From contig JAGVAB010000144.1 in assembly GCA_020060485.1 (NCBI GenBank), positions 1 to 64,000 of the forward strand: DNA of 64,000 bases, in the 5' to 3' direction. The stretch comes from Anaerolineales bacterium. GTDB lineage: Bacteria; Chloroflexota; Anaerolineae; Anaerolineales; Anaerolineaceae. The translations under genes were made by a program, and so were the position numbers. The notes under the pieces are model-generated. The model had not been told where the DNA came from and did not search any database. It saw nothing but the letters and a program-made list of their open reading frames with translations. Below are positions 6,085 to 40,947 of the stretch, piece after piece (position 1 is the first letter of the stretch; each line of letters opens with the position of its first letter).

Positions 6085-6957
6085 TTAATTCTGTTGCGCC
6101 GCTTTCTTTTTCCTGGCGCGATAATGTTGGATATAGCGCCGGCCGCCGGCATCCAGTCCAGCCAAAAAATCCATCGCGCGCACAGTCGGCACCAGGCCGC
6201 ATGTTGCCGGATTAACCAGAGCCGAATCCAGCCCGACAGGAATGCTGCCCACCAGAAAGGCCAGGTCGATGACTGTGGCCTCCGGCATGCCATAACCGGC
6301 ATTCCCAATCCCCAGGGTTGTTGCCACAAACAACTCATCATGCAAACGCTGCAAGGTTTCCAAAGTCACGCCAAACGAATCAGGTTCAGCCGACGAAGCC
6401 AGGCAAATGGCATCCATCACCACATCGCCGCGCGGCATGCCAATCCCCAGACAGGCATCCACAATCACCGCCGCCTCAACCAGGCGTCCGTCCGCTGTCT
6501 TGGGCATTCCAAATTGGGAACCGATGGGCATACCCACCACAGCCGCCCCATATTTTCTGGCAATCGGCAAGATCAATTCCAGCGACTCTTTCTCTGCGGT
6601 CACCGAATTGATCAGAGCCTTGTATGGCTTCAATTCAACAAGGGCTGCTTCCAGCGCCTGTGGATTGCGCGAATCCAGCGAGATTGGGCAGCCAATCTCA
6701 TCCTTCACCCGCCGCACGATACGCGGCAGCAGGTCAAGCTCATCCAGGTCAGGATGAAAGACCAGAATGTCCACCATATCGGTGCCAATCTCCTGCCCCC
6801 AGCGAGCCAGCGCAAGAATGCCGTCCAGTTTTCCTGTCTTGAGCTCTTCGAGAATATTTTCCGACTGATCCATGATTCTCAATTGATCATTGATCAACAC
6901 CGTGGGCCGGCCAGGCCCGATTTCAATTGTTGTTTTGGGTCCGCTCAGGATGGTCAT
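6085..6957 (-). CDS. MtrH/AcsE-like pterin-binding methyltransferase
   Basis: 290 residues forming a TIM barrel of the dihydropteroate-synthase/methyltransferase type. SLDSRNP, NSVTAEKE and AVVGMPIGS match the folate- or methanopterin-binding strands of MtrH (methyl-H4MPT:corrinoid methyltransferase subunit H) and AcsE-like methyl-THF:corrinoid methyltransferases. Such enzymes move methyl groups between a reduced pterin and a corrinoid protein, but no corrinoid protein is encoded in this window. It overlaps the upstream gene by ATGA (4 bp), with AAAGGAG 11 nt before the start. It is the last gene of operon B. A role in recovering or delivering C1 units, or simply in binding a pterin-like substrate, is inferred from the fold. 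Confidence 0.7.
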   Translation of the reverse strand: MTILSGPKTTIEIGPGRPTVLINDQLRIMDQSENILEELKTGKLDGILALARWGQEIGTDMVDILVFHPDLDELDLLPRIVRRVKDEIGCPISLDSRNPQALEAALVELKPYKALINSVTAEKESLELILPIARKYGAAVVGMPIGSQFGMPKTADGRLVEAAVIVDACLGIGMPRGDVVMDAICLASSAEPDSFGVTLETLQRLHDELFVATTLGIGNAGYGMPEATVIDLAFLVGSIPVGLDSALVNPATCGLVPTVRAMDFLAGLDAGGRRYIQHYRARKKKAAQQN

Positions 6958-7754
6958 GCTGCAAATATCTCCTTTACCTTGCGAAATGCTTCGGCCTCGC
7001 TGGTCGAGGGAGTGAATTCCATCCCGATCAAGCCATCAAATTCAAGTTCTTTGAGCTTGCGGGCAATGTTGGGAAAGTTGATCTCACCTGTACCAGGCTC
7101 CTGGCGGGTAGGGCAGTCTCCGATATGTACGGTGGGATACAGCCCCTGATATGACTCCAAACCGTAGATCAAATTGCCAGCGGTGCGTTGCTGATGATAG
7201 CAATCAAAAGAGAGCTTCAGTTGCGGGTGATTGATGCGCCGCACCACATCTGCCGCCAGATCATGGGTGGAGACGAACACCCCACCATGAATATGAAAGG
7301 TGTTCAGCGCTTCGAACCAAAGGACTACGTCTGTTTTTTCCACCAGCTCCATCACCCGCGCCGTCCCATCCAGCAGGTTGGCATACATCTCTCCCGGCGT
7401 ATAATCCCGGCTCAGGGGAGCGATCCACTCACTGCCATCCGGCCGTAAATTGATCTGGTTGGAGAAGATGAACAGATGTGGAATCTGATAGCGTGTTGCC
7501 ATTTCCAAAGATTCAGCCCACGAATCCAGGCAACGAGGATGGTCATTAGCATCCACCAGATTGCCAGGTTGGGAATCAAACGTAGAGTTAATGATGCATC
7601 CATGCCGCTGACATTCGGCAAAGATCTCTGCCATCGGCCGTTCGCGCCACAGCCAAACATCCAGGCGATGAATGCCAAGTGCAGAAAACTTTTCCACCCG
7701 TTGTACAATGGGCAGCTCTTGAAACCAGAAATCCAGATATCCGGTAAATTCCAT
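6954..7754 (-). CDS. Hydroxypyruvate isomerase-like TIM-barrel protein
   Basis: 266 residues of the sugar-phosphate isomerase/epimerase (AP-endonuclease 2) fold. Its C-terminal half carries HIGDCPTRQEPGTGEINF, very like the metal- and substrate-binding stretch of hydroxypyruvate isomerase (Hyi), with the preceding WFEALN, SFDCYH and the final GMEF acidic residue as the other expected metal ligands. Hyi interconverts hydroxypyruvate and tartronate semialdehyde in glyoxylate metabolism, which would fit the glycerate kinase at 45764-47143, though the relatives include many other keto-sugar isomerases. It is translationally coupled to the MtrH-like gene and lies 20 bases after the ECF permease gene. 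Confidence 0.68.
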   Translation of the reverse strand: MEFTGYLDFWFQELPIVQRVEKFSALGIHRLDVWLWRERPMAEIFAECQRHGCIINSTFDSQPGNLVDANDHPRCLDSWAESLEMATRYQIPHLFIFSNQINLRPDGSEWIAPLSRDYTPGEMYANLLDGTARVMELVEKTDVVLWFEALNTFHIHGGVFVSTHDLAADVVRRINHPQLKLSFDCYHQQRTAGNLIYGLESYQGLYPTVHIGDCPTRQEPGTGEINFPNIARKLKELEFDGLIGMEFTPSTSEAEAFRKVKEIFAA

Positions 7755-7774
7755 AAAACCTCGCGTTCAGATTC

Positions 7775-8629
7775 TTATTGGAACGGGCTGGAAAACTTTC
7801 CGAACCCGGTGGTGAAGTAAAGCACAAAAGCCGCCACCAAAAAGATCAGAAAGAAAATCATGATGGCATAGTCTCTGCCTTTCAGAACAGATTCATGTAA
7901 ATAGGTGCGGTCAGGCTTGCCTGAGAAAGCCTTGGATTGCAGAACAACTTCCAGTTGTTGCGACTTAACCATCGCCCCCAGGATGAGCGGAACGGCCACT
8001 TTGGCATACACCTTTATGCGTTGCAAAGGGCCCATCTTTTCCATAGCCATACCCCGCAAACGCTGGGCTTCAATGATCGTACCAATCTCCGAAAACAACA
8101 GGGGGAAAAACCGCAGGGTAGCTGAAAAAATGAATGCAATCTTGTAAGGAACACGCGCCCGCACCATCCCAACAATCATATTATCAACATCGGTTGTGAA
8201 GATCACCAACGGCACGACCAGGATGATATTCAAGGTTTTGACGATCACATTGATTCCATACCAGAAACCTTCCAAACTCATCCCGTTGCCGCCAATCAAC
8301 CACCAGTTTTCAGGAAAGGTAAACATAGGGGTCAATTCAACTCTTCCTGTTAAAGCCTTGACTTGATCAACATTAAAGAAACCATGCGTGATGAGCAAAA
8401 GGATATAGAACGGCAGCATGATCAACAAAACCGTATAGATATACTTCAAGCGCACACCGCCAAAAATGCAGGCCAGCAAGATCACCAGAGCCAACCCAAG
8501 CTGGGCCGTGGGGCTTTCCCACAGGAAGGCAATCATCGTGATGACCGCCATCATGAAGAGTTTGGGGCGGAAATCAAGCCGGGTGAAGATCGAGTCCCGT
8601 TCAACAGTCTGAAACTTCATCGAACTCAT
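7775..8629 (-). CDS. ecfT: ECF transporter transmembrane component EcfT
   Basis: 284 residues from the ATG at 8629, which overlaps the stop of the ATPase gene as ATGA; an earlier in-frame ATG at 8653 would overlap further. Five to six membrane segments, and the conserved cytoplasmic coupling helix with EAQRLRGM and a second helix with LQSKAFSG, the two short motifs that dock EcfT to its ATPases. EcfT transmits ATP hydrolysis to the substrate-binding S component. The order S, ATPase, EcfT here indicates a dedicated group-I type transporter rather than a shared module. Confidence 0.85.
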   Translation of the reverse strand: MSSMKFQTVERDSIFTRLDFRPKLFMMAVITMIAFLWESPTAQLGLALVILLACIFGGVRLKYIYTVLLIMLPFYILLLITHGFFNVDQVKALTGRVELTPMFTFPENWWLIGGNGMSLEGFWYGINVIVKTLNIILVVPLVIFTTDVDNMIVGMVRARVPYKIAFIFSATLRFFPLLFSEIGTIIEAQRLRGMAMEKMGPLQRIKVYAKVAVPLILGAMVKSQQLEVVLQSKAFSGKPDRTYLHESVLKGRDYAIMIFFLIFLVAAFVLYFTTGFGKFSSPFQ

Positions 8630-10371
8630 TTGGTGCCGCCTTTCATTGGGCAATGGAAGCAGTCTGCCAATTCAAATGGCGTAAGGAATGGATAACTGTG
8701 TCCATCCTTTTTTTCCAGAATTCTGGAAAGCAACACGGCTTGTGGCGGTGTCAGATAGGTACTGCGCAGCAAATCAACCTCATGGTATGCCTGGCGAATG
8801 GGAGCATCCAGCAGCAGCGTGCCCTTGCCCATTACAATCACCCGCTCGGCATATTCCGGCATTAAATACAGGTGGTGGGTAATTACGATGACCGTTTTGC
8901 CCATTTCATGAAGTTTGCGGCTGATCTCCAGAATGTAGTTTGCGCCGCGGTAATCCTGGCCGGTAGTCGGTTCGTCAAAGATGATGATCTCTGGCTGCAT
9001 CGCCAGAATGGCAGCAATGACCACCCGGGCGCGGTCACCTTTGGGTAATGCCAGCGGATGCATATGGCGCACACTCAGCAAGCCCATTGCTTCCAGCGCC
9101 TCCACCGTGCGCTGTTCCACTTCCTCCGCACTGTGCTTCATCGCTTTGAGCGCAAAAGACACTTCGTCACCAACCGTGGCATTGAAAATCTGATTGTCAG
9201 GATTTTGCGCCACGTAACCGATGCGCCGGGCCAGGTCAGACACAGACAATTTGGAAGAGCTGACCCCGCCGACTCGCACCTCTCCCGAAGTTGGTTTTAA
9301 CAAATTAAGAAAGTGCTTGACCAGGGTACTCTTGCCTGCCCCATTTTGACCAATGATGAGCACATATTCACCTTCACGAACATCCAGAGAAACACCATGT
9401 AAAGCCTGTGTACCATCCGGATAGACATGCCGTAAATCCTTGACATGCAGCAGCGACTCACCGGAATACTCAACCGGCTGGGGTATGGAATCAGACGGGT
9501 GTATGGAACAATCCGCTTTCTTCAGACTGAGCAAAAGTGATTCGCCCTCGTCCATGCGCACCGGAATTTTCGGAATTGCGATTGCTTTGTTCTGGATCAA
9601 ATAAAACGTTGAAGCTACCTGGGGAGGACGCACTGCATTTTCGTGCAGCATGGGAATGTTGGCATAGATCTCATCCGGCGTGCCCAGGGCGGTCAACTGA
9701 CCATTAGCAAGCAACCCAAGCCGGTCAGCATGTTCTGCCATCTCCTCGGCAGCATGGCTGGCCATGACAATGGTCATGCCCAGTTCTTTGTTCAATTCGC
9801 GCACCGTAGAGAACACCTCCTGGGCGCCGATTGGATCAAGCTGCGATGTCGGCTCGTCCAGCACCAGCAAATCCGGCTGAACCGCCAGAGCTGCAGCAAT
9901 TGCCAGGCGTTGTTTCTGTCCACCGGACAACTCCATGGGATGCTTCTTGTTTGTGTTTTCCAGACGCACGGCTTCCAACACGCGGGGGATCCTTTCGAGA
10001 ATGATTTCGCGCGGGAATTTCAAATTTTCCAGCGCAAATGCAATTTCGTTCTCCACCGATGTTGCAATCAGCTGGGTTTCCGGGTCCTCAAATACGATAC
10101 CCACATGCTGCGCCAGGGTACTGATAGGATGATCCACAGTGTCCAAACCCGAGATCGTGATCTTTCCAAAAAACCGGCCGCCGTAGAACTGCGGCACTAT
10201 CCCATTCAATGCGCAACACAGCGTTGTTTTACCAGCCCCTGTCGGTCCGATCAATCCAAAGAACTCACCCTTGCGGATTTCCAGGTTGACCTCACTCAGC
10301 ACCATGCCTTCCGAGCGGGGATACATGTAGGAAACTTTTTCCAGAATGGCAATTGGTTCTGTCATTTTCAT
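8626..10371 (-). CDS. Fused double ABC ATPase of an ECF transporter
   Basis: 581 residues from 10371 (MKMTEP; 10365 is an alternative). Two ABC domains are fused. Domain 1 has Walker A GPTGAGKTTL, signature LSGGQKQR and Walker B LLVLDEPTSQLDP. Domain 2 has Walker A GQNGAGKSTL and Walker B IIIFDEPTTGQD, but the signature is LPKGDRARV, a departure from LSGGQ. One composite ATP site is therefore degenerate, as known for several asymmetric ABC ATPases. It powers the ECF importer made with the flanking S and T components. It sits 67 bases after the S component and overlaps ecfT. Confidence 0.88.
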   Translation of the reverse strand: MKMTEPIAILEKVSYMYPRSEGMVLSEVNLEIRKGEFFGLIGPTGAGKTTLCCALNGIVPQFYGGRFFGKITISGLDTVDHPISTLAQHVGIVFEDPETQLIATSVENEIAFALENLKFPREIILERIPRVLEAVRLENTNKKHPMELSGGQKQRLAIAAALAVQPDLLVLDEPTSQLDPIGAQEVFSTVRELNKELGMTIVMASHAAEEMAEHADRLGLLANGQLTALGTPDEIYANIPMLHENAVRPPQVASTFYLIQNKAIAIPKIPVRMDEGESLLLSLKKADCSIHPSDSIPQPVEYSGESLLHVKDLRHVYPDGTQALHGVSLDVREGEYVLIIGQNGAGKSTLVKHFLNLLKPTSGEVRVGGVSSSKLSVSDLARRIGYVAQNPDNQIFNATVGDEVSFALKAMKHSAEEVEQRTVEALEAMGLLSVRHMHPLALPKGDRARVVIAAILAMQPEIIIFDEPTTGQDYRGANYILEISRKLHEMGKTVIVITHHLYLMPEYAERVIVMGKGTLLLDAPIRQAYHEVDLLRSTYLTPPQAVLLSRILEKKDGHSYPFLTPFELADCFHCPMKGGTK

Positions 10372-10438
10372 CCCATCAAATCCGGCCTGACTGCCAGCTC
10401 CACCCCGCATTCACTGGCAGTCAGGCTCATAAAAAAAT

Positions 10439-11224
10439 TTAGTAGATGGCGTTGGTGGGTTTTACCAGGCCGATCGCCCGCAAACCAGCGATGACACCCG
10501 TGCCAATCACGGTACCAATTGCGCAGCGAGAGAGAAACTCAATCGGGATCAGGGGAATTAACATGACCCAAATCTCTTCCGGCCAGTTGAACATGAAATA
10601 GGTAACAGCGGATTGGCAAACATGCGCAAGACCAAAGGTCATCCAAGTGCCCAGGAAGAGTCCCACAGCCACCATTCCTGTATTTTTTGACCCAATCCAC
10701 TTGGCAAACAAGGTGCGGGTTGGCAAAACAAAGAGCAAAATCGCCGACCAGTCCACAAAAGAACCCAAAATGGCATTACCAGCAGAAACACCATTCTGGA
10801 AGATGGCACGGCCGACAAAGAACAGGAAGGAAAGCACCGAAAGGACTGCGACCCCAATCCACCAGCCCTTGCGCTTGCCGCCCGTCATCATGATGCCTGC
10901 AGCGAAGCTGGTCACCACCGCACCATAGACTGAAACCGGCCACACGCCAGCAGTATGAGGCGCTACAAAGACACCGATCAGGGTGCCGATACCGGATGCG
11001 ACTGCCCCGGCGATGGGGCCAAGCACCCAGCCAATCAGGCCGAAGATGCCCTGGCTCATTGGAAAACTGCCGCCAGAGGCTAAAACCACAGAGAACGGGA
11101 TGAAAGCCAGAGCAGTGACGACAGCAGCCAGCACAACAATATACGCTACTGGTGCACCGTCAATTGCAGCCCCGCCCAAAAACTTTACTGAACGTTCCTC
11201 GCCAGAAGGTTGTGCAGAAGACAT
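10439..11224 (-). CDS. ECF transporter substrate-binding (S) component
   Basis: 261 residues, about six membrane segments, a 25-residue polar N-terminus and no signal peptide. Glycine- and proline-rich segments (SQGIFGLIGWVLGPIAG) resemble S components of the energy-coupling-factor family, which bind vitamins, their precursors or nucleobase-like molecules inside the membrane. The substrate is unknown. The cluster context suggests a heterocycle or cofactor-like compound. GAAAGGA is 8 nt upstream. The 143 bases before it hold no gene and could carry a weak secondary promoter. Confidence 0.72.
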   Translation of the reverse strand: MSSAQPSGEERSVKFLGGAAIDGAPVAYIVVLAAVVTALAFIPFSVVLASGGSFPMSQGIFGLIGWVLGPIAGAVASGIGTLIGVFVAPHTAGVWPVSVYGAVVTSFAAGIMMTGGKRKGWWIGVAVLSVLSFLFFVGRAIFQNGVSAGNAILGSFVDWSAILLFVLPTRTLFAKWIGSKNTGMVAVGLFLGTWMTFGLAHVCQSAVTYFMFNWPEEIWVMLIPLIPIEFLSRCAIGTVIGTGVIAGLRAIGLVKPTNAIY

Positions 11225-11367: not shown

Positions 11368-12132
11368 TCAACTCATAATACGTCCACCATCTATCTCGAT
11401 GGCCTGACCGTTAATATAGCGTGCTTCGTCAGATGCCAAAAATGCCACCAGGGCTGCGGTTTCATCAACAGTTCCCAATCGCTTCATCGGATTGGATTGG
11501 CAAAGCTCTGCCAAATATGACCCTTCTTCCCATCCATTTTCTTCACAAACCCGTTTATCCACCTGCCGCATCATCTCCGTATCTGCATGGCCCAGGCAGA
11601 CCGCATTGCAGTTGACATTGTATGGTCCCAGTTCCATGGCCACCGAACGAACCAGGCCAATTCCGCCGGTCTTGGCTGCCGAATAAGCAGCAGTGCCCGG
11701 CCAGGAGGTCTTGCCAGCCATGGAAGACATGACCACAATGCTGCCCGAATTCTGGGCGATCATATAGGGCGCCACCGCGTGACAGCTCAGAAAGGTACCC
11801 GTCAAATCAATATCCATGACAAGTTGCCAATCCTTAATCAAATCCTCTGTCAACGGGCCGCCGCGATAAACCCCGGCATTGGCAACCAACACATCAATCC
11901 GCCCCCATTGATCAATAACAGCTTGAAAGGAATTATGTACACACTGATGATCTGCAACATTGCAATATACCGCCATGCCATCCACTTCTTCGCTGGTTTC
12001 CCGGGCGCGATCCAGAACAATATCCAACACAGCCACTTTGGCACCCTCTGAAGAAAAACGCTGTGCACAAGTGCGACCAATACCCTGCGCCCCGCCAGTG
12101 ATCACCACTACTTTATTTTCAAAACGTTTCAT
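11368..12132 (-). CDS. SDR-family oxidoreductase (diacetyl/acetoin reductase-like)
   Basis: 254 residues from 12132, coupled to the E1 beta gene by ATGA, with GGGAG 6 nt upstream. A classical short-chain dehydrogenase: TGGAQGIGRT dinucleotide motif, NAG (NAGVYRGG), catalytic Ser in VVMSSMAG and YSAAK, and a C-terminal IDGGRIMS. It converts an alcohol to a ketone with NAD(P). Its position directly after acetoin-dehydrogenase-type E1 genes suggests that it makes or removes the alpha-hydroxyketone or diketone used by that complex. Unlike the two SDRs in operon A it has an intact Ser-Tyr-Lys triad. Confidence 0.8.
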   Translation of the reverse strand: MKRFENKVVVITGGAQGIGRTCAQRFSSEGAKVAVLDIVLDRARETSEEVDGMAVYCNVADHQCVHNSFQAVIDQWGRIDVLVANAGVYRGGPLTEDLIKDWQLVMDIDLTGTFLSCHAVAPYMIAQNSGSIVVMSSMAGKTSWPGTAAYSAAKTGGIGLVRSVAMELGPYNVNCNAVCLGHADTEMMRQVDKRVCEENGWEEGSYLAELCQSNPMKRLGTVDETAALVAFLASDEARYINGQAIEIDGGRIMS

Positions 12133-13115
12133 TGGCTTCTCCCACAAAGTCGGCGAACTGCATTGACCACATCCTCTGCACCGGGTAAAACATAATTTTC
12201 CAATTCCGGGCTGTACGGCAATGGCACATTTCTGGCGCCCACCCGCAAGATCGGCCCGTCCAGATATTCAAGCGCATCTTCAGCCAGCATCGCCGCGATT
12301 TCCGCACCCGGCCCATTTCGCAAATGGGCTTCATGGGCGATCACCACCCGCCCGGTCTTTGCCACCGAATCGATCAAGGTTTGCCGGTCAAGTGGTACCA
12401 GTGTGCGCGGGTCAATCACTTCAATTTCAATTCCCTCGGTTGCCAGCACCTCGGCCGCCTGCAAAGTCTTTTGAACCATAATCCCGATTGCAACCACGCT
12501 TGCATCCTTGCCAGAGCGCAAGATGTTAGCTTCCCCAAACGGCACCATGAAATCTTCATCTTCAGGCACCGGCCCTTGCAAGGCATACAACATTTTGTGT
12601 TCAAAGAAAAGTACCGGGTCTTCTCCGCGCATGGCTGTCTTGAGCAGCCCCTTGGCATCTGCTGGTGAGGCTGGCACCACGATCTTCAAACCGGGTATGT
12701 TCATGAACCACGATTCAGGACTCTGTGAATGTTGTGCCGCAGCCGAACCTGGCGCCCCGCTGGTGATGCGGATGGTCAAAGGCACATCTGCCCTGCCGCC
12801 GCTCATATAGCGCGCCTTGGCCACCTGATTGGCAATCTGGTCCCCGGCGCACATCAGAAAATCGCCAAACATGATCTCCACCACCGGGCGCATTCCTACC
12901 ATGGCCGCCCCAAGACCGCTGCCAATAATATTGATCTCTGAGATGGCGGTATCGCGAATGCGCTCTGGCCCAAATTCAGCCAGCATGTCATGGGAAACTC
13001 CCCACACCCCGCCAAATACACCCACATCCTCACCCATCAGGAAGACTGCCGGCTCGCGGCGCATTTCTTCACATAGGGCTTCACGAATGGCTTCTGAATA
13101 GCTGATCGTTCGCAT
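12129..13115 (-). CDS. 2-oxoacid/acetoin dehydrogenase E1 component, beta subunit
   Basis: 328 residues from the ATG at 13115 (MRTISYSEAIREAL, the usual family start, with GAAAGG 11 nt upstream); an ATG at 13124 is only 2 nt from that site. Transketolase-like pyrimidine-binding domain followed by the C-terminal transketolase domain: MGEDVGVFGG, HSQSPE, and EVIDPRTLVPLD are the conserved landmarks of PdhB/AcoB proteins. It forms the alpha2beta2 TPP enzyme with the upstream gene, 29 bases away. The matching E2 is at 39439-40782 in operon A. Confidence 0.9.
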   Translation of the reverse strand: MRTISYSEAIREALCEEMRREPAVFLMGEDVGVFGGVWGVSHDMLAEFGPERIRDTAISEINIIGSGLGAAMVGMRPVVEIMFGDFLMCAGDQIANQVAKARYMSGGRADVPLTIRITSGAPGSAAAQHSQSPESWFMNIPGLKIVVPASPADAKGLLKTAMRGEDPVLFFEHKMLYALQGPVPEDEDFMVPFGEANILRSGKDASVVAIGIMVQKTLQAAEVLATEGIEIEVIDPRTLVPLDRQTLIDSVAKTGRVVIAHEAHLRNGPGAEIAAMLAEDALEYLDGPILRVGARNVPLPYSPELENYVLPGAEDVVNAVRRLCGRSQ

Positions 13116-13144
13116 TGAAACCATAACCTTTCTCGTTCGTTTCC

Positions 13145-14176: not shown

Positions 14177-14210
14177 CAGTACCTCATCCTTCAACCTACA
14201 ATCGTTTGAT

Positions 14211-15545: not shown

Positions 15546-15549
15546 GCGA

Positions 15550-16380: not shown

Positions 16381-16396
16381 TGTATTCTTCTCCCTT

Positions 16397-17323: not shown

Positions 17324-17602
17324 CAAGGTACCTCCCTGGCCATAATACACAGTGCGGCCAAAATTCCTACTGATCCTGAATTTTAATATTTCCCAAAAAC
17401 CAATTCTTCTGGTGTACCGTCCTGCCATTTTTTACTCAAGACAAAAAATCAATTTGCTTTAGGGAAATTGAGCCCTCAACTGAATTCCAAGCCGTGCCAA
17501 TTTTCTTGAAAATGCAGTCGTTCAAATTGTAAATACGGATAAGAAATTTCCTGTTACATATTGACTGATCCTGTCATTGTCAGGGATTTGACCCGATCCA
17601 GC

Positions 17603-17636
17603 TTTTGCAGGGGCGCTTTGCGGCGCCCCTGCAAAA
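17603..17636 (-). other. Perfect intercistronic stem-loop after the binding-protein gene
   Basis: A 14-bp perfect inverted repeat (TTTTGCAGGGGCGC at 17603-17616, complement at 17623-17636) with a 6-nt loop, 13 bases after the stop of the substrate-binding protein. No U-tract follows on the minus strand, so it is better read as an mRNA 3'-stabiliser or processing site that keeps the binding-protein message more abundant than the permease message, as known for malE-malF. Partial termination is possible. Confidence 0.75.
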
Positions 17637-17649
17637 TTATCTTGGCGAA

Positions 17650-23618: not shown

Positions 23619-23638
23619 TATTGACTTTACTATGTTAA

Positions 23639-24757: not shown

Positions 24758-24848
24758 CAATCCTTCCATCTTCACTTCAAAGTGCTGTACATGATCAAGC
24801 GCGCTGTTCCTGTGCTTTTCACAAAATACCAACTCGCGGCTGAGTTTG

Positions 24849-28070: not shown

Positions 28071-28101
28071 ATCGAACTTTCTCCTATACAATATATTTTT
28101 A

Positions 28102-29310: not shown

Positions 29311-29332
29311 CAAAATTTTGCTGCCTTCCTGT

Positions 29333-30352: not shown

Positions 30353-30368
30353 CAGCTTCTTTTCTCCT

Positions 30369-31736: not shown

Positions 31737-31740
31737 CGCC

Positions 31741-34205: not shown

Positions 34206-34242
34206 CAATCCTGTCTTTTCTGCCTGTTCAGACTGTCCGGTG

Positions 34243-36573
34243 TCATTTGAGCCGCAAACCCTGGCGGATGCGGGCTGGATTGGCCTTACGATGTGGTTCG
34301 ACACCAGTGGCCAAACGTTCCATGGTGAGCGGTATCGTATGGTAACGCTCACTGGTGGCTTGATACTGCGCGTTAGCAATAGCCGGGGCGATGGCAATCA
34401 TGGTTGGTTCGGCCATGTTCTTTGCCCCAAAAGGCCCATTGTCATAAACCGTTTGAATGAAATTGATCTCCATTTCTGGAAGGTCGAGTGCGGTGGGAAT
34501 TAGATACTGGTTGTAATTCAAACAGGTCGGCAGACCCTGGTCATACTTCATCTCTTCCATGGTGGCGTACCCCAGCCCCTGGGCGATACCGCCATACATC
34601 TGCCCATCTGCTCCCTGTTTGAAGATCACCGTACCGCTATCATGGGCAGCCCAGATACCAAGTACCTTCATCCCGCCAGTCAATACATCAACTTCCACCT
34701 CGGCCACCTGCGCCCCAAAGGTATAGCAAATATAAGGCGTACCCGTGCCGTTCTCAAAATCCCAGTGGAACTTTGGCATTTCCCATTTACCCTCGACATA
34801 TAAGGTGAGGTTCATCTCGCGGGCATGCTGCACGATCTTTTCAAAAGACACTGGTTCTTCATCCGGCCCGATGAACAGTTCGCCTTGGCGAAGGATTTGA
34901 GTTGGCTTGCATTTCAAAAGGTCTGCCGCAGCGAAATTCAACACTTGCAGCATTTTTTGCGCCGCAACTTTGGCGGCATTCCCTCCCAGCATGCTGCTGC
35001 GTGAAGCCACTGTCGGGCCAGATTCCACTGCCGTGGTCGTGTCGGTGCAAGCCACCCGCATACGGTCATAATTAATGCCCAGTGTCTCAGCAGCCAGAAG
35101 CGCAAACACCGTGCGGCTGCCCTGCCCATAATCGGTCAGACCGCTGGTCAGCAGCACGGTATGATCAGGCTCAATGCGCATGGTGGTGGTCGCGTAATCT
35201 GCCCCCTCGCCCCCCAGACTGGAGCCATGCATGTAACATGCAACCCCGATGCCGCGCCGAAGATCACCTGCCTGGCTGGCATATTGGCGCCGTTTGGCAT
35301 CCCAACCGGACTGCTCCCGCACCCACTGGATGCAGTCCGCCAGACCAATCTCTTGTTCCAGCCGGTTGCCTGTCATTACAGTCTCGCCATTTTTGCGCAC
35401 AATATTCTTGAGTCGAAATTCGATGGGATCTTCACCCAATTGACAGGCAAATTCGTCCACAGCCTGTTCAATCGCCGCCGCAGCTTCGGTGTTACCAAAC
35501 CCGCGGTAAGCCCCCGAATACCCGTTGTTGGTATAAACAGATTTGGTGTCCACATGCACTGCCTGGTAACGATACGCACCGGCCGCATGCACCGTCGCCC
35601 GCCAGGAGGCCAGCGGGGTCATCGAGGCATACGCACCGCTGTCAGCCAGCATCTCTACCTTTGCCGCCTGAAAATGACCATCCTTGTCCGCCCCCAAGCA
35701 AATATTGATCTCCATCGCTTCGCGCTTGTACGAGGCCATCAATGATTCTTCGCGCGAGGTCAACAAACGAACCGGTTGGTTGGTTTTCAAAGCCAGCGCC
35801 CCAACTATGGCCGCGTGTTGATAATTGATGTCATCCTTCCCGCCAAATGAACCACCCACTGCCGGCTGGATCACTCGCACTTTTTCCACTGGCAGACCCA
35901 ACAACATCACCAGATTATCCCGATTGATGAACGGGCTTTGATCATTACAGTAAATAGTCAGGCTGCCATCCGGACCGGGAATTGCCAGAGCTCCTTCCGT
36001 CTCCAGATAGGCATGTTCCTGATGCGCAAATGAATAGGTTTTTTCAAACACATAAGCACAGTTTTTCAGAATCGGGTCGGGGTTTCCATTGCGAACCAGA
36101 TGGGTGTTGACCAAATTCCCTTTTCCCAGCGGGGGTTCCAGCGGCACCAGAGGGGCGTCCGCATCCAGCGCCCGGCGCATGTCTGCCACCACTGACAGCT
36201 CCTCCAGTTCAAAAATGATGGCCCGCATGCCTGCCAGAGCAGCCGCTTCGTTTTCTGCAGCCACAGCCGCAATGGGATCACCCACATGACGTACTTTTTG
36301 CCAGGCCAGCACATAGGCATCATTTACCGGCCAGCCAAAATTGCCATGGTTGACAAAATCTTCAGGTGTGACCGCTGCCTTGACACCGGGCACTTTCAAT
36401 GCCGGGGAAACGTCCAGCTTTTTGATGCGGGCATGTGGCAGCGGACTGCGCAGCACAGCAGTGGTCAGCATACCCGTCAAATGAATGTCAGCCACAAATC
36501 GGGCTTTTCCCAAAACCTTATCCAGTCCATCCACCCGCCAGGCAGGTTTGTTCAGGTAAGCATGGTCGCTCAT
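34243..36573 (-). CDS. Xanthine dehydrogenase family, molybdopterin-binding subunit (operon A)
   Basis: 776 residues from the ATG at 36573, coupled to the 2Fe-2S gene by ATGA. Molybdopterin-binding GGSFGGKDD and AYRGFGNTE are clear. The motif that holds the catalytic Glu reads PFGAKNMAEP (E722) instead of the usual GxGE, so the enzyme is a divergent member. Three separate subunit genes (FAD, 2Fe-2S, Mo) make a complete hydroxylase. It inserts oxygen from water into a heterocycle C-H bond. Its closest named functional relatives include xanthine dehydrogenases, XdhD-like and nicotinate-type hydroxylases. Confidence 0.88.
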   Translation of the reverse strand: MSDHAYLNKPAWRVDGLDKVLGKARFVADIHLTGMLTTAVLRSPLPHARIKKLDVSPALKVPGVKAAVTPEDFVNHGNFGWPVNDAYVLAWQKVRHVGDPIAAVAAENEAAALAGMRAIIFELEELSVVADMRRALDADAPLVPLEPPLGKGNLVNTHLVRNGNPDPILKNCAYVFEKTYSFAHQEHAYLETEGALAIPGPDGSLTIYCNDQSPFINRDNLVMLLGLPVEKVRVIQPAVGGSFGGKDDINYQHAAIVGALALKTNQPVRLLTSREESLMASYKREAMEINICLGADKDGHFQAAKVEMLADSGAYASMTPLASWRATVHAAGAYRYQAVHVDTKSVYTNNGYSGAYRGFGNTEAAAAIEQAVDEFACQLGEDPIEFRLKNIVRKNGETVMTGNRLEQEIGLADCIQWVREQSGWDAKRRQYASQAGDLRRGIGVACYMHGSSLGGEGADYATTTMRIEPDHTVLLTSGLTDYGQGSRTVFALLAAETLGINYDRMRVACTDTTTAVESGPTVASRSSMLGGNAAKVAAQKMLQVLNFAAADLLKCKPTQILRQGELFIGPDEEPVSFEKIVQHAREMNLTLYVEGKWEMPKFHWDFENGTGTPYICYTFGAQVAEVEVDVLTGGMKVLGIWAAHDSGTVIFKQGADGQMYGGIAQGLGYATMEEMKYDQGLPTCLNYNQYLIPTALDLPEMEINFIQTVYDNGPFGAKNMAEPTMIAIAPAIANAQYQATSERYHTIPLTMERLATGVEPHRKANPARIRQGLRLK

Positions 36574-37058
36574 CTTGGATCCTCCATTGCCTTGCTGCGC
36601 CGGACAGCGGTCTCCTGAATGGCGTCCACAATTTGCTGATAACCGGTGCATCTGCACAAATTGCCAGAGATGGCTTCCCGAATCTCCTGCCGGTCAGGGT
36701 TCAAGGTTTTCTTCAAAAGGGCTTCACCTGCCAGGATCATCCCCGGTGTGCAAAAGCCGCATTGAACAGCACCATGATCCATAAATGCCAGTTGCAGGTC
36801 ATTGGGTGAGCCATCCGCATCACTGATGCCCTCGATGGTTACCACCCGGCAGCCTTCCACCTGAGCAGCCAGCATGATGCAAGATTTCCGCAATTCATCG
36901 TTGACCAGAACTGCACAAGTGCCGCACTCCCCCACATCACAACCCTGCTTGGTGCCGGTCAAACCCAGGTCATCTCGCAGCAATCCCATCAACGTCTGTT
37001 CAGGAGAAATTTCAATTTCCACAGGCTTTCCGTTCAATTCAAACTGAATGTGCATCAT
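36570..37058 (-). CDS. Xanthine dehydrogenase family, 2Fe-2S subunit (operon A)
   Basis: 162 residues. The N-terminal plant-type ferredoxin cluster uses GCDVGECGTC and a later SC; the C-terminal cluster uses QCGFCTPGM and LCRCTGY. It passes electrons from the Mo site to FAD. Overlaps both neighbours (TAATG with the FAD gene and ATGA with the Mo gene), so expression is tightly coupled. Confidence 0.93.
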   Translation of the reverse strand: MMHIQFELNGKPVEIEISPEQTLMGLLRDDLGLTGTKQGCDVGECGTCAVLVNDELRKSCIMLAAQVEGCRVVTIEGISDADGSPNDLQLAFMDHGAVQCGFCTPGMILAGEALLKKTLNPDRQEIREAISGNLCRCTGYQQIVDAIQETAVRRSKAMEDPR

Positions 37059-37927
37059 TATTCCTCCCGGGCATGCTGCCAGATCTTTTTCAAACAGCGT
37101 AACATGAGTGCCGGCAGCACCTGCAATCGATAACGGGTATCGGCATCGTTCCCCCAGTGCATTTCAAGCAGCGACACCAATTCGTCTGCTGCTTGCTGGA
37201 ACAAACTATCGGAGGCAGCCTGGCCATTCAAACGTTGTTCCACCCTTTCCCACCGGATCACACCCCAGCCCTCCACGTAGGTGGCTATACGCAAATCCAG
37301 TGGCGCCCCATCGGCAAACGCTGCCGCTGTTGTGACCACCCCTGCCAGCAATTCGCCAGGCATCTGGCGGCGTTTGACTTCCTCGCATTGCCAAAAGACT
37401 GGCCGTACATGCGGGATCAGTACAGCCGTGAGCAGGCCCTGGCTTTCTGTCTGCCCGGCATCAAGCCAATCCAGCACTGGCATCCGCGTTTCTCCGCTAG
37501 CATTTACGATCACCACAACCGCATCCAGCACCGCAAACACCGGAAACAACAACCCCGTGTTTCGTCTGGCAGCCAGTCTGCCGCCCAGGGTATAGGCATT
37601 GCGCCGGGCTGGATCGCTGCTGCCATGCAGAACTTCTGCAAAATGTGGCATCTCAGCCTGTATCAACGGATGCTTCTCCAACTGGCTGAGACTTAAGCCT
37701 GTACCCAGCATCAGGTATGGCTGTTTCTCCACCTGCACCAGTTCCACCTGATGCAGCGGTACAACGCCAGAAATATCGATCAGGCGATCGCATCCCAAAC
37801 GCCCAAAACGCAATGCCATGCTGATCCCCGCACCACCGGCCAGTACCTGACTGGTCTGCGCCGGATCATTTAACAAATGGACTGCCTCTTCAATTGACTG
37901 TACGCGGGTTATGGATTTAAGACTCAT
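37058..37927 (-). CDS. Xanthine dehydrogenase family, FAD-binding subunit (operon A)
   Basis: 289 residues, with the FAD-binding VLAGGAGISMALR and the Asp/Arg-rich stretch GSSDPARRNAYTLGG, which corresponds to the usual GS.Q.RN.GT.GGN pattern of CO-dehydrogenase/XDH flavoproteins. The motif is altered (RRNAYTLGGRLAARR in place of GGNIA), as in YgfM-type proteins. It hands electrons to NAD or another acceptor. It begins 1 base after the preceding SDR stop. Confidence 0.83.
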   Translation of the reverse strand: MSLKSITRVQSIEEAVHLLNDPAQTSQVLAGGAGISMALRFGRLGCDRLIDISGVVPLHQVELVQVEKQPYLMLGTGLSLSQLEKHPLIQAEMPHFAEVLHGSSDPARRNAYTLGGRLAARRNTGLLFPVFAVLDAVVVIVNASGETRMPVLDWLDAGQTESQGLLTAVLIPHVRPVFWQCEEVKRRQMPGELLAGVVTTAAAFADGAPLDLRIATYVEGWGVIRWERVEQRLNGQAASDSLFQQAADELVSLLEMHWGNDADTRYRLQVLPALMLRCLKKIWQHAREE

Positions 37928-37928
37928 G

Positions 37929-38663
37929 TCAGATCAAACTCCTTCCCCCATCCACGTGATACACAGATCCGGTAACGAACTCATTGGTCACCAGGAACTC
38001 AGCCAACCGGGCGACATCGGTCGGTTCACCCACCCGCTTGAGAACTGATTTTTCCACTGCCCATTGCACCTTGGCTGGCGGCGGGTCGGGTGGCAGGAGC
38101 ACAGTGCCGGGGGCTATGGCATTCACCCGCACAGCCGGCGCTAATTCATAGGCCATTGATTTGGTCAAAGCAACCAGAGCGGCCTTGCTGGCTGCGTGGT
38201 GCGCATACCCCGGCCAAACCTGGAAGGCAGAAAGATCGGCGATATTCAGGATCACCCCGCCGCCCTGCGCCAGCATGTGTGGTGCAACAGCCTGCGAGCA
38301 CAAGAACGGCCCTTTCAGATTCACCTCAAGCGACAGGTCCCATTCATCTTCACTGATCTCCAGGAAAGGCGTTTTCAACCATACCGAGGCATTGTTGATC
38401 AAAATGTCGATCTTGCCCAGTTTCTGCCGGGTGGCCTCCACCAAAGAGCGCACCTGCGCGGCGTCCCGCACTTCAACCTGGGTAGCCAGGCAACGCACGC
38501 CAAAAGCCTCAATATCAAGCTTCGTTTCCTGCCAGGGTTCAGCATCCGTGTAATAGCTGAAGGAAATATCTGCCCCCTTTTCTGCAAAATAAAGGGCCAC
38601 TTCCCGCCCCACACGGCTTGCCGCGCCAGTGATCAGTAGCACGCTGTCTTTAATTTCCATCAC
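37929..38663 (-). CDS. PTR1/FolM-like SDR with His in place of the catalytic Tyr (copy 1)
   Basis: 244 residues. Rossmann motif ITGAASRVGRE, NNAS at 90-93 and a C-terminal HVDGGRS show an SDR. Asp143 sits where classical SDRs have Ser, as in pteridine reductase PTR1 and FolM. The usual Tyr of YxxxK is His156 in HHAASK (K160); the codon reads CAC. VNAIAPGTVLLPPD also resembles the PTR1/FolM group. Activity is uncertain without Tyr. The next gene upstream is a paralogue with the same change, so this is not a sequencing error. Confidence 0.75.
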   Translation of the reverse strand: MMEIKDSVLLITGAASRVGREVALYFAEKGADISFSYYTDAEPWQETKLDIEAFGVRCLATQVEVRDAAQVRSLVEATRQKLGKIDILINNASVWLKTPFLEISEDEWDLSLEVNLKGPFLCSQAVAPHMLAQGGGVILNIADLSAFQVWPGYAHHAASKAALVALTKSMAYELAPAVRVNAIAPGTVLLPPDPPPAKVQWAVEKSVLKRVGEPTDVARLAEFLVTNEFVTGSVYHVDGGRSLI

Positions 38664-38686
38664 ACCTCTCCAAATTTAGATTGGCC

Positions 38687-39421
38687 TCAGACGACGGTTG
38701 CGCCACCGTCCACTACCACAGCCTGGCCGGTAATAAAATCCGAGTCCACTAGAAATTTAACCGCCTTGCAAACGTCCTCTGGTGTTCCCATCGCCTGCAA
38801 GGGGATATTTGCTTTAAGGGCTTGCCATCTTCTGTCATCCCATTCCGGGGGTTTGAGCACCGCCCCCGGCAGGATCGCATTGACCCGTATCTTCGGTGCC
38901 AAAACAATCGCCGCAGACTGAGTCAAATTCCATAAAGCAGCCTTCGAAGCGCCGTGATGGATCCAGGTCAATGCGGGCCGTTTGACGGATTCATCAATGA
39001 TATTAATGATCAGGCCGCCATCCTGTTCCTTCATGATCCTGGCAGCCTCCTGCATGAAAAAGAACGGTCCGCGGGCATTGACATCCATCACCGTATCCCA
39101 ATTTTCAGGCGTAACCGAGAAGAAATCCGCCGTTCCAAAAATGGATGCACTGTTGATCAGCACATCCAGACGCCCCAGGCGTTCGCGGATCATGGACATC
39201 GTCTCGCGAATCTGGGCAATCTGCCCCTGATCACAGCGAATGGAAAGCACCTGGCATCCAAGCGACTGGATTTCCTGCTGGGTTTCCCTGGCAACATCTG
39301 CCGAAGAATGATACGTAAATACAACCGTTCCGGCGCCCATTTCGGCCAACAGTAAGGCGATCGCTTTGCCAACCCGGTGCGCTCCTCCTGTTACCAGCAC
39401 AACCCTTCCTTTTAAATCCAC
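38687..39421 (-). CDS. PTR1/FolM-like SDR with His in place of the catalytic Tyr (copy 2)
   Basis: 244 residues, a paralogue of the neighbouring SDR. Motifs: VTGGAHRVGKA, NSAS, Asp143 in NIIDES, His156 and Lys160 in IHHGASKAAL, VNAILPGAVLKPPE, and a C-terminal VVDGG. Spacing of Asp, His and Lys is the same in both proteins. The pair may form a heteromer or act on two oxidation states of one substrate. Encoded between E2 and the first SDR with gaps of 17 and 23 bases. Confidence 0.75.
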   Translation of the reverse strand: MDLKGRVVLVTGGAHRVGKAIALLLAEMGAGTVVFTYHSSADVARETQQEIQSLGCQVLSIRCDQGQIAQIRETMSMIRERLGRLDVLINSASIFGTADFFSVTPENWDTVMDVNARGPFFFMQEAARIMKEQDGGLIINIIDESVKRPALTWIHHGASKAALWNLTQSAAIVLAPKIRVNAILPGAVLKPPEWDDRRWQALKANIPLQAMGTPEDVCKAVKFLVDSDFITGQAVVVDGGATVV

Positions 39422-39438
39422 ATCTGCCTCCTCAATCT

Positions 39439-40782
39439 CTAATCATTCCATACAGACCATAGAAAGGGTTGTTCGATATATTGCTTGACCCTCTGCAAAA
39501 AGCGCGCTGCCGGCGCGCCATCCACCAAACGGTGGTCAAAAGAAAGGCTCAACGTCACCATGGAACGCAGCGCAATTTGACCATTCAGACCGACCGGTCT
39601 CTCATGAATGCGGCCTACCCCCAAAATGCCGCATTCGGGTGGATTGATCAGCGGTGTGAAGCCATCGATCTCATAAGCGCCCAAATTTGTGACTGTGAAG
39701 GTACCTCCGGTCAGGTCATCCATCGTATTCCTGCCGTTCAAGGTGCGTTTGATCAAATCATCCAGTTCCTGCTGAACAGATTCAAAAGACTTCTGGTCCG
39801 CTTCCTTCACGACCGGCACCATCAACCCTTGCGGCCCATCAACTGCCAGACCAATATTCACCTGCTGGTGTTGAGCCAATCCCTCCGCTAGCAGACTGAC
39901 ATTCATATAAGCATGTTCCCGCAGGGCTTTGGCCGCAATCTTGACCAAAAGGGCATTGAAAGAAAGTTTGATGTCTTTTGCCATCAATTCCTGGTTCAAT
40001 TGCTGCCGCGCCAGCACAAACATCGTTGCATCAGCATCTGTATTCAGGGTGACCTGGGGCCGCTCGACCCAGCTTTTGCTCAAGCGGCTGGCGATGATGG
40101 CGCGCAAATCGCTCAATGGCTTTACGTCCGGCCCGGCCTGTGTGGCAGATGGCGGCTGCATGGCCCGCTCCACATCCTCCCGGCTTACAATGCCCCGCGA
40201 CCCGCTGCCCGCCAATTTACTCAGATCGATTCCTGCCTGGGCGGCCAGACGCCGGGCAACCGGCGTGACTTTCACTTCATCCAGCCGGGACTGTGCATCC
40301 ACAACATCCTTGCTGACCACCATGCCGCGTATGCCCGTCCCGCGTACCATTTCGAGATCAATCCCTGCTTGCCGCGCTGCTGCTCTGGCTCGCGGGCTTG
40401 CCCTCCCGCCGGAAGATGATCGCTCCAGGTCCTCCTCCAAAGGCTGCACAGTCTGATGATTGCCCTCTGCGTTACGTGTAACACCGCTTTCCTGTGCAGG
40501 TTCATGATGGTGTCCTCCAGTTGCCTGATCGCCATAGATTAATGCCACCGGCTTCAAGATAGGTACCACAGACATAACCTCCACCTGGATCTTTACCACC
40601 CCGGACACCGGGGCTTCGATATCCAGGGATGCTTTTTCATTCTCAATGGCAAACAACGGCTCGCCTTTTTCGACCTGCTCGCCGTCCTGTTTGTACCATT
40701 CAACGATTTTCCCCTCTGTCATGGTCAACCCAAGGCGGGGCATGACCACCTGATACGCGTTTTTCGTTTCAGTTTGACCCAT
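39439..40782 (-). CDS. Dihydrolipoamide acyltransferase E2 with two peripheral-subunit-binding domains
   Basis: 447 residues from the ATG at 40782 (MGQTETK), with AAAGGA at suitable spacing. Order: lipoyl domain (about 8-85, lipoyl-lysine K50 in ENEKASLDIE), linker, first E1/E3-binding domain (129-163, ARAAARQAGIDL), second (173-207, VARRLAAQAGIDL), then the catalytic core with SFDHRLVDG (H417, D421). Two binding domains rather than one is unusual. It is the first gene of operon A, while its E1 partners lie in operon B. No E3 (dihydrolipoamide dehydrogenase) is in the window. Confidence 0.9.
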   Translation of the reverse strand: MGQTETKNAYQVVMPRLGLTMTEGKIVEWYKQDGEQVEKGEPLFAIENEKASLDIEAPVSGVVKIQVEVMSVVPILKPVALIYGDQATGGHHHEPAQESGVTRNAEGNHQTVQPLEEDLERSSSGGRASPRARAAARQAGIDLEMVRGTGIRGMVVSKDVVDAQSRLDEVKVTPVARRLAAQAGIDLSKLAGSGSRGIVSREDVERAMQPPSATQAGPDVKPLSDLRAIIASRLSKSWVERPQVTLNTDADATMFVLARQQLNQELMAKDIKLSFNALLVKIAAKALREHAYMNVSLLAEGLAQHQQVNIGLAVDGPQGLMVPVVKEADQKSFESVQQELDDLIKRTLNGRNTMDDLTGGTFTVTNLGAYEIDGFTPLINPPECGILGVGRIHERPVGLNGQIALRSMVTLSLSFDHRLVDGAPAARFLQRVKQYIEQPFLWSVWND

Positions 40783-40905
40783 TTTGATGATCATCCTTTG
40801 TAGTTCTAATTTGCATGGCTGTGTGCAATCCTGGCGGCGGCGTGTTATTCCAATGGCTGCCAGACCCTCCACAAGTATCAAGAGACTTAACGGAGTAAAT
40901 ATTTA

Positions 40906-40920
40906 CTTTACATTGTAAAG
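40906..40920. promoter_or_regulatory. Palindromic operator candidate, copy 2 (operon A)
   Basis: CTTTACA-T-TGTAAAG, perfect 7-bp arms, overlaps the -10 box of the operon A promoter at 40919-40924, a typical position for a repressor site. TTTACTTTACATT on its left flank is shared with copy 1 at 23605-23618; the spacer differs by one base. Binding by the XRE-cupin protein is inferred. Confidence 0.72.
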
Positions 40921-40947
40921 TTTAGCATAACCGGCTTTTTATTTCAA
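40919..40947 (-). promoter_or_regulatory. Probable promoter of operon A
   Basis: Read on the minus strand: -35 TTGAAA (40942-40947), 17-bp spacer, -10 TAAACT (40919-40924). It drives E2 and the 17-kb gene run downstream. The palindrome starts within the -10 box, so bound protein would block the polymerase. Transcription would start about 125 bases before the E2 ATG. Confidence 0.65.

What the first reader, a model, noticed from the sequence alone, without database searches (positions are those of the whole stretch)
6085..40947. Two opposing-end operons appear to form one regulon: shared palindrome and a split dehydrogenase complex
TTTACTTTACATT followed by TGTAAA occurs in both promoter regions (23605-23618 and 40906-40920), each a near-perfect palindrome, and in operon A it overlaps the -10 box of a TTGAAA-17-TAAACT promoter. 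E2 is gene 1 of operon A; E1 alpha and beta are in operon B. An XRE-cupin regulator is gene 1 of operon B. Sharing of both operator and complex subunits argues that about 30 genes act on one substrate.
Basis: partly seen in the sequence, partly recalled or inferred. Interest (0 to 1): 0.8.

Follow-up and report, generated by a model that had tools for sequence, protein, structure and literature searches.

The report
Split operon sharing one conserved switch
Two neighbouring gene runs in a Chloroflexota-type bacterium carry the same promoter switch because, judging by related genomes, they are two halves of what is elsewhere one operon, probably for breaking down a ring-shaped nitrogen compound, cut exactly between the subunits of one enzyme complex.

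Summary
TTTACA-N1/2-TGTAAA occurs exactly twice in the window (0.02 expected), once before each of two tandem minus-strand runs. E2 heads run A. E1-alpha, E1-beta and a leading XRE-cupin regulator lie in run B.

In five sibling genomes the core genes form one collinear run (GH31-HyuA-SsnA-E1a-E1b-E2-SDR-SDR-[XDH]-SsnA-UROD-UbiD-LLM-YgeY-YgeW-AOR). The window is this run cut between E1-beta and E2, with the promoter-operator module at both halves: a -10 overlapped by operator O1, then O2 about 20 bp on. A matrix built only from relatives' operators ranks the window's two promoter regions first and second. In the family, 11 of 147 genomes match the 15-bp operator; in 7 it lies before genes of this pathway.

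The XRE-cupin is the likely repressor: its gene follows the operator in the window and G001, and related HTH-only genes sit there in G003 and G006. Binding is untested; a TetR-like gene elsewhere lies beside the same palindrome.

The pathway resembles the reductive urate route, but YgeX is above cut-off in 0 of 6 relatives and no YgfK/UacX was seen, so the substrate is open. The window's own genome is not held.

The parts
40942..40947 (-). -35 box TTGAAA of promoter A
   Evidence: aligned with GTTGAAW in G001-G006
40919..40924 (-). -10 box TAAACT of promoter A
40906..40920 (.). Operator O1 of promoter A, perfect palindrome CTTTACATTGTAAAG
   Evidence: (27.7 bits, rank 1 in the window with a matrix from relatives only)
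40886..40900 (.). Degenerate operator O2 of promoter A, exactly 20 bp from O1
   Evidence: 11 of 15 positions
39439..40782 (-). E2, dihydrolipoyl acyltransferase (first gene of run A)
   Evidence: Pfam; start from relatives' alignment
38687..39421 (-). SDR3 oxidoreductase
37929..38663 (-). SDR2 oxidoreductase
37058..37927 (-). XDH-type FAD subunit
36570..37058 (-). XDH-type 2Fe-2S subunit
34243..36657 (-). XDH-type molybdenum subunit
   Evidence: no equivalog cut-off reached
32910..34397 (-). SsnA/ATZ-type amidohydrolase A
31741..32961 (-). URO-D/MtaA-like protein 2
30369..31817 (-). UbiD-family decarboxylase
29333..30379 (-). Luciferase-like (Mer/F420-type) reductase, 87-90% identical in six relatives
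28102..29355 (-). YgeY-family M20 hydrolase
   Evidence: 395.6 bits, cut-off 321
27078..28115 (-). OTC/YgeW-like carbamoyltransferase
26769..26996 (-). MoaD/ThiS-like small protein ending in GG
   Evidence: region aligned across 7 genomes; family named from recall
24849..26759 (-). Aldehyde:ferredoxin oxidoreductase (AOR)
23639..24952 (-). URO-D/MtaA-like protein 1
23664..23669 (-). Putative -35 TTGTAT of promoter B (weak; placed by geometry of relatives)
   Evidence: inference; not listed by the consensus scan
23641..23646 (-). Putative -10 TACATT of promoter B
   Evidence: inference; not listed by the consensus scan
23625..23639 (.). Degenerate operator O1 of promoter B (CTTTACTATGTTAAC)
   Evidence: 12.6 bits, second-ranked place in the window
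23605..23618 (.).
22890..23441 (-). XRE-cupin regulator (183 aa)
20427..22862 (-). GH31 alpha-glycosidase
19005..20420 (-). HyuA/D-hydantoinase
   Evidence: 521.4 bits, cut-off 393.25
15550..18987 (-). Sugar-type ABC importer: binding protein 17650-18987, permeases 16397-17428 and 15550-16458
14211..15662 (-). SsnA-like amidohydrolase B
13145..14287 (-). E1 alpha
12129..13124 (-). E1 beta
11368..12147 (-). SDR1 oxidoreductase
7775..11224 (-). ECF-type transporter: S-like 10439-11224, ATPase 8626-10410, CbiQ-like 7775-8653
   Evidence: the S-like protein has no Pfam match and is named by position and by its hydrophobic sequence
6954..7754 (-). Hydroxypyruvate-isomerase-like TIM barrel
6085..6957 (-). 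Pterin-binding methyltransferase-like protein

Best explanation
The two runs are one regulon made by splitting a single ancestral operon. In sibling genomes one promoter drives the core genes as one run. In the window that run is cut between E1-beta and E2; the E2...AOR half now lies upstream of the XRE...E1 half on the same strand, and each half starts with a copy of the same module: -35, 17 bp, -10 overlapped or directly followed by operator O1, and a second operator O2 about 20 bp (two helical turns) downstream. The XRE-cupin encoded first in run B most likely binds O1/O2 as a dimer through its HTH domain, blocks RNA polymerase at both promoters, one of them its own, and lets go when a pathway compound occupies the cupin domain. 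The two halves are then made together, so that E1 and E2 meet as one 2-oxo-acid dehydrogenase complex with an E3 encoded elsewhere. The genes together look like an anaerobic reductive route for a purine-type N-heterocycle: molybdenum hydroxylase, F420-type reductase, two deaminase/ring hydrolases, hydantoinase, and two ureido-cleaving enzymes. Shown by computation: sites, module conservation, collinearity, gene families. Inferred: the split as a history, repression, the regulator's identity, the inducer and the substrate.
For: Two sites against 0.02 expected. Collinear single run in 5 of 5 relatives with an uninterrupted region, E1a-E1b-E2 adjacent in all five. Operator at that run's promoter in G001, G002, G003, G005, G006, with one T-to-A change in G004, and before HyuA in G040. 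Of these, G001-G003 were picked after the palindrome had been seen in their loci, whereas G004-G006 were picked by regulator homology with no palindrome visible in their loci: G005 and G006 then proved to have the exact site and G004 the one-change site. Of 147 genomes in the family, 11 match CTTWACANTGTAAAG (reversed control: 6 matches in 6 genomes), and in 7 of those 11 a site is before pathway genes. Matrix from 6 relatives' sites only: rank 1 = 40906 (27.7 bits), next place = 23625 (12.6), then 8.3 and lower; a 30-bp promoter matrix without the operator also finds promoter A first (21.8 against 11.0), and the 47-bp promoter+O1 matrix scores it 52.3 against -4.5. Identity of the 40 bp before the operator 0.74 in six promoters against 0.32 and 0.30 in flanks. 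O2 at +20 is the best of offsets 10-30 in 6 of 8 promoters, tied in G005, +21 in promoter B. XRE gene directly behind the operator in window and G001; HTH-only genes in the same place in G003 and G006 fall in the same clade as the window's XRE. Model with HTH and cupin domains, pLDDT 88, nearest solved structure 1y9q. E3 over cut-off in 6 of 6 relatives.
Against: Genome-wide counts of TTTACA-N1/2-TGTAAA in G001-G006 (14) are close to those of the reversed control pattern (11), so number alone proves nothing; position does. G002 and G004 have no XRE gene seen at the operator and G005 only an apparent remnant, yet the operator stays, so another protein (such as the 206-aa XRE-cupin found in all six) may bind it. 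The same palindrome lies beside a TetR-like gene in L108 and in similar double sites in L109 and L110. O1 of promoter B is degenerate, its O2 has a 2-base spacer, and its -35/-10 are weak and placed by analogy. A promoter matrix match alone does not find promoter B. A strong hairpin after YgeW (27036-27069; -26.3 kcal/mol) may limit read-through to AOR/UROD1.
Confidence: 0.78

Rival explanations
1. The regulon is real but the regulator is another protein: the 206-aa XRE-cupin paralogue encoded near the cluster in relatives, or a TetR-family protein encoded outside the window.
For: The 206-aa type is present in all six relatives, including G002, G004 and G005, where no intact 183-aa gene was seen at the operator. 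A TetR-like gene lies beside the same palindrome in L108 (family named from recall).
Against: The 183-aa gene sits directly behind the operator in window and G001, and HTH-only genes of the same clade do so in G003 and G006. Upstream of G006's 206-aa gene (L009) there is a different palindrome, TCAAGTATTACTTGA; the other 206-aa loci show no such site. No TetR domain was found among the 60 window ORFs scanned with Pfam.
Confidence: 0.25
2. The two runs share an operator by descent but are no longer co-regulated; promoter B has decayed and run B is expressed by read-through from run A or independently.
For: O1 of promoter B is degenerate (12 of 15 positions) and its -35/-10 are weak. No terminator-like site was found between the runs at 23200-24000, so read-through is possible.
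Against: O2 of promoter B is a full-length inverted repeat and the tandem O1/O2 geometry is kept. Read-through from A would still couple the runs.
Confidence: 0.15
3. The genes do not degrade urate but a different N-heterocycle, for example a pterin or pterin glycoside, a flavin-like or a modified purine compound.
For: YgeX (TIGR03528) is above cut-off in 0 of 6 relatives (their completeness is not given). GH31, UbiD, AOR, two URO-D proteins and E1/E2 are not among the enzymes of the published urate route in the sections read. Mer-like reductase, SDR3 with a pteridine reductase model as second-best match below cut-off, pterin-binding protein and ECF-type importer would fit a pterin-type molecule.
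Against: HyuA and YgeY pass curated cut-offs. PMC12507026 section 9 reports Chloroflexota SsnA neighbourhoods with a luciferase-family protein in place of YgfK/UacX. The flank at 42.7-60.7 kb looks like purine/allantoin catabolism.
Confidence: 0.35
4. The two palindromes are chance or terminator-like sequences without regulatory role.
For: In G043 and G051 the same 15-mer lies between unrelated genes beside a T-rich stretch; raw genome-wide counts are close to a reversed control.
Against: 0.02 expected per window, location before pathway genes in seven relatives, conservation of the adjoining promoter far above flanks.
Confidence: 0.03

Closest known systems
Reductive uric acid degradation cluster of E. 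coli / C. difficile (PMC12507026; abstract and sections 5 and 9 read)
   Same: XDH-type hydroxylase, SsnA-like and HyuA-type amidohydrolases, YgeY, YgeW-like carbamoyltransferase; the paper notes that Chloroflexota SsnA neighbourhoods have a luciferase-family (putative F420-dependent) protein, as here
   Different: No YgfK/UacX-type domain among the window ORFs scanned; SsnA and YgeW models below cut-off; YgeX not above cut-off in six relatives; adds GH31, E1/E2, UbiD, AOR, URO-D proteins and SDRs; the passages read (abstract, sections 5 and 9) report no operator, regulator or E1/E2 for Chloroflexota
XRE-cupin (PuuR-like) repressors
   Same: N-terminal HTH_3 and C-terminal cupin; first gene behind the operator; nearest solved fold 1y9q
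   Different: PuuR model far below cut-off (49.6 of 211 bits); the exact operator strings were not found as a regulator site in the held papers
Pyruvate/branched-chain 2-oxo-acid dehydrogenase complexes (E1 alpha/beta, E2, E3)
   Same: All domains of E1 and E2 present; E1 beta passes a PDH subfamily model
   Different: E1 and E2 genes separated by about 25 kb in two runs; no E3 among the window ORFs scanned; substrate unknown

Membership tests
Reductive urate degradation cluster (E. coli/C. difficile type) | D-hydantoinase HyuA | tested here: met
   TIGR02033 521.4 bits, cut-off 393.25
Reductive urate degradation cluster (E. coli/C. difficile type) | YgeY hydrolase | tested here: met
   NF009555 395.6 bits, cut-off 321
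Reductive urate degradation cluster (E. coli/C. difficile type) | SsnA equivalog | tested here: not met
   NF005540 248.8 bits against cut-off 444; second homologue 189.2
Reductive urate degradation cluster (E. coli/C. difficile type) | YgeW carbamoyltransferase | tested here: not met
   NF005538 220.9 bits against cut-off 453
Reductive urate degradation cluster (E. coli/C. difficile type) | YgeX diaminopropionate ammonia-lyase | tested here: not met
   0 of 6 relatives over cut-off; one of 14 control genomes is over it. Window genome not held and completeness of the relatives not given
Reductive urate degradation cluster (E. coli/C. difficile type) | YgfK or UacX ring reductase | tested here: inconclusive
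   No such Pfam domain among the 60 window ORFs scanned; luciferase-family protein present instead, as PMC12507026 reports for Chloroflexota; relatives' genomes not searched for YgfK
Reductive urate degradation cluster (E. coli/C. difficile type) | Urate conversion | not testable with these tools
   needs enzyme assay
XRE-cupin regulators | HTH_3 plus Cupin_2 domains | tested here: met
XRE-cupin regulators | Binding to own operator | not testable with these tools
   position and co-occurrence only
2-oxo-acid dehydrogenase complex | E1 alpha, E1 beta, and E2 with lipoyl, E3-binding and catalytic domains | tested here: met
2-oxo-acid dehydrogenase complex | E3 available | tested here: inconclusive
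   over cut-off in 6 of 6 relatives; none among the window ORFs scanned; own genome not held

The most novel reading that the evidence does not exclude
The cluster encodes an undescribed anaerobic pathway for an N-heterocycle (not the E. coli urate route) that combines F420-type ring reduction, a UbiD decarboxylase, ureido cleavage and a dedicated 2-oxo-acid dehydrogenase. Its local XRE-cupin switch is being lost stepwise in sister lineages (full regulator, HTH-only, remnant, none) while the operator persists and is taken over by a paralogous XRE-cupin.
Probability: 0.35. Interest if true: 0.7.

Novelty: new variant of a known kind. Interest (0 to 1): 0.5.

Why it matters
It turns a guess from one window into a testable regulon: a defined operator, a named candidate repressor and a conserved gene set. 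Related gene sets recur in many of the Anaerolineae loci mapped, and my few literature searches brought up no regulator for them. It is also a clear natural case of an operon cut inside an enzyme complex with the switch kept at both ends, which tests why such genes stay co-regulated.

Tried and rejected
Own-genome motif count: not possible, no genome held. Motif upstream of all XRE-cupin homologues: among the 49 loci examined only L001 has the full palindrome within 400 bp upstream of the homologue; four other loci have a different palindrome there (AAGT-type in L002, L007, L009, L020, 42 loci), so this operator belongs to one clade, not to all XRE-cupins. Other copies in G001-G006: L080, L086, L087 and L091 lie next to or inside genes that are not in this pathway; L092 and L093 show no pathway gene and were not looked at further; L084 and L090 precede a second E1 operon in two close genomes, which I did not count as support. 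In the family scan the sites L152, L153, L154, L155 and L157 show no pathway gene. A class-wide scan (396 genomes) gave 5 genomes with 6 sites (reversed control: 2 genomes); only G001's two sites are in this pathway; L108-L110 look like TetR double sites and L112 lies in a coding ORF. The YgeX search was negative, so I do not file the cluster as the E. coli-type urate pathway. A search of 400 genomes of the order for regulator orthologues at E <= 1e-57 found only G001. Rfam scan of the window: no match at gathering scores. Paper searches for the exact operator strings found nothing relevant (1 and 2 papers, on ParB, yam SNPs and rDNA introns, seen in listing only). Searches were seen as listings only, apart from PMC12507026. 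The plasmid search gave only distant XRE-cupins, all 493 records under 60% identity.

Rows dropped: tblastn maps kept the best hit per gene or place, with query coverage cuts of 20-40%; A1 used 31 sequences, out of 531 hits of which 120 were listed; one search used 49 of 79 loci; one search used 42 of 79 loci; the tree used 21 loci, the 31 rows of A1, and 3 further proteins. Two rows (G001_183, G002_206) were mis-framed in my script and give no result. The 0.79 identity includes the operator on which the promoters were selected; I therefore use the operator-free figures.
Full report
OBSERVATION. The pattern TTTACAN{0,4}TGTAAA has exactly two matches in the 64 kb window, at 23605-23618 and 40907-40919; 100 shuffles gave 0.02 on average. 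Both lie upstream of long minus-strand gene runs. Run A (23639-40782) starts with E2; run B (6085-23441) starts with an XRE-cupin regulator and holds E1 alpha and beta. The runs are in tandem on one strand. Genes mostly overlap or lie within 30 bp; larger gaps are 318 bp (holding a small MoaD/ThiS-like ORF), 221, 197 (the gap between the runs) and 143 bp. In all there are 30 genes.

RELATED GENOMES. No genome is held for the window. Homologues of the regulator point to Anaerolineae (Chloroflexota). One genome-contig scan gave 79 loci. Six genomes (G001-G006) carrying the gene set were examined by whole-genome search and by stretches. G001-G003 were chosen after the palindrome had been seen in their loci; G004-G006 were chosen as regulator homologues with no palindrome visible in their loci. 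In G002, G003, G004, G005 and G006 the core is one collinear run: GH31, HyuA, SsnA-B, E1a, E1b, E2, SDR3, SDR2, (XDH trio in G002 and G004 only), SsnA-A, UROD2, UbiD, LLM, YgeY, YgeW, AOR. E1a and E1b are 77-81% and E2 53-62% identical to the window's. In G001 the contig ends inside E1a, so its junction is unknown, and no E2 passed 1e-60 there. The window therefore corresponds to this run cut between E1b and E2, with the E2 half now in front. Tandem duplication followed by complementary loss would give this order, but that history is inference.

SWITCH. In G001, G002, G003, G005 and G006 the sequence CTTTACANTGTAAAG stands at the promoter of this run, directly before the XRE gene in G001 and upstream of GH31 in the others; G004 has one T-to-A change at the same place. 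Aligned on the operator, the 40 bp before it are 0.74 identical in six promoters (five relatives and promoter A), operator excluded, against 0.32 and 0.30 in flanks; promoter A alone shares 26-30 of these 40 bases with each relative. The layout is TTGAAW, 17 bp, a -10 overlapped by O1, and O2 20 bp downstream: +20 is the best of offsets 10-30 in 6 of 8 promoters, tied in G005, and +21 in promoter B. A matrix from six relatives' sites, not using the window, ranks 40906 first (27.7 bits) and 23625 next (12.6), the rest at 8.3 or less.

HOW SPECIFIC. Raw counts of TTTACA-N1/2-TGTAAA in G001-G006 (3, 2, 4, 1, 3, 1) are close to the reversed control (0, 2, 2, 3, 1, 3): most copies outside the pathway are probably chance, and it is position that matters. 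With CTTWACANTGTAAAG, 11 of 147 genomes of the family match (reversed control: 6 matches in 6 genomes), and in 7 of these 11 (G001-G006 and G040) a site lies before pathway genes. In G040 it precedes HyuA, after a gene I recognise as UbiX, the usual partner of UbiD (name from recall). In 396 genomes drawn from the class, 5 match CTTTACANTGTAAAG (6 sites; reversed control 2 genomes); only G001's two sites are in this pathway, three others (L108-L110) look like double sites of a TetR-type regulator, and one is in coding sequence.

REGULATOR. The window XRE-cupin has HTH_3 and Cupin_2 domains, a confident model (pLDDT 88) and 1y9q as nearest solved fold. In G003 and G006 an intact HTH-only ORF (92 and 90 aa) sits between operator and GH31; G005 keeps an apparent short remnant; G002 and G004 show none. 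In the tree these HTH-only proteins fall in the 183-aa clade with the window and G001 (clade support 0.977; the inner node that places them is weak, 0.19), apart from a 206-aa XRE-cupin clade that has a member in all six relatives. Upstream of G006's 206-aa gene there is a different palindrome (L009). I infer that the 183-aa protein is the native, self-regulating repressor, and that in some sisters another protein, perhaps the 206-aa type, has taken over. None of this is a binding test.

PATHWAY. HyuA and YgeY pass curated cut-offs; SsnA and YgeW homologues do not. The luciferase-family protein is closest, among solved structures, to F420-dependent Mer, is 87-90% identical in the six relatives, and the F420 gene cofE is over cut-off in 6 of 6 relatives. 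Carbamate kinase and E3 are over cut-off in 6 of 6. PMC12507026 (abstract, sections 5 and 9 read) describes reductive urate degradation and notes that Chloroflexota have a luciferase-family protein in place of YgfK/UacX. Against a simple urate route: YgeX is above cut-off in 0 of 6 relatives, and GH31, UbiD, AOR, two URO-D proteins and E1/E2 have no place in it. I rate a purine-type substrate as somewhat more likely than not, with pterin-like compounds as the main alternative.

LIMITS. No binding, expression or metabolite data exist. Promoter B's boxes are placed by analogy. A strong hairpin after YgeW may reduce AOR/UROD1 transcription. The sugar ABC genes, ECF transporter, SDR1, TIM isomerase, pterin-binding protein and UROD1 are not in the collinear core, so their joint action on the substrate is unproven.

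Noticed in passing
window 26769-26996 (-): Small ORF ending in LPQIAGG, a MoaD/ThiS-like protein (named from recall), between YgeW and AOR; the region aligns in seven genomes.
   Followed up: partly
window 27036-27069 (-): 15-bp hairpin after YgeW (-26.3 kcal/mol, z -6.1); hairpin-like repeats of different sequence stand at the same place in several relatives (read by eye).
   Followed up: partly
window 42697-60730: Purine/allantoin-type region: isochorismatase/biuret-hydrolase-like, M20, MOFRL glycerate kinase, AllG, FdrA, second XDH, xanthine/uracil permease, AllH; no site above background in the operator matrix scan there.
   Followed up: partly
L133 around 9281 (G003) and L137 around 1354 (G006): HTH-only relatives of the XRE-cupin, cupin domain missing, between operator and GH31.
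   Followed up: partly
L084 and L090 at 1501-1514: TTTACA-N2-TGTAAA upstream of a second E1 alpha/beta operon, on the same contigs about 4 kb from E3 genes; a possible further regulon member.
   Followed up: no
L002, L007, L009, L020 upstream of the XRE-cupin gene: Other XRE-cupins have their own palindromes, TCAAGTNTTACTTGA in L007 and L009 and related AAGT/ACTT repeats in L002 and L020.
   Followed up: no
L108, L109, L110: CTTTACANTGTAAAG with a second variant site CTTTACACCGTCAAG; beside a TetR-like gene (recalled) in L108.
   Followed up: partly
L151 859-1419: UbiX-like gene (recalled) before the operator and HyuA in G040, hinting that UbiD works with prenylated flavin in this pathway.
   Followed up: no
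window 17603-17636: 15-bp hairpin between the binding-protein gene and the permease genes.
   Followed up: no
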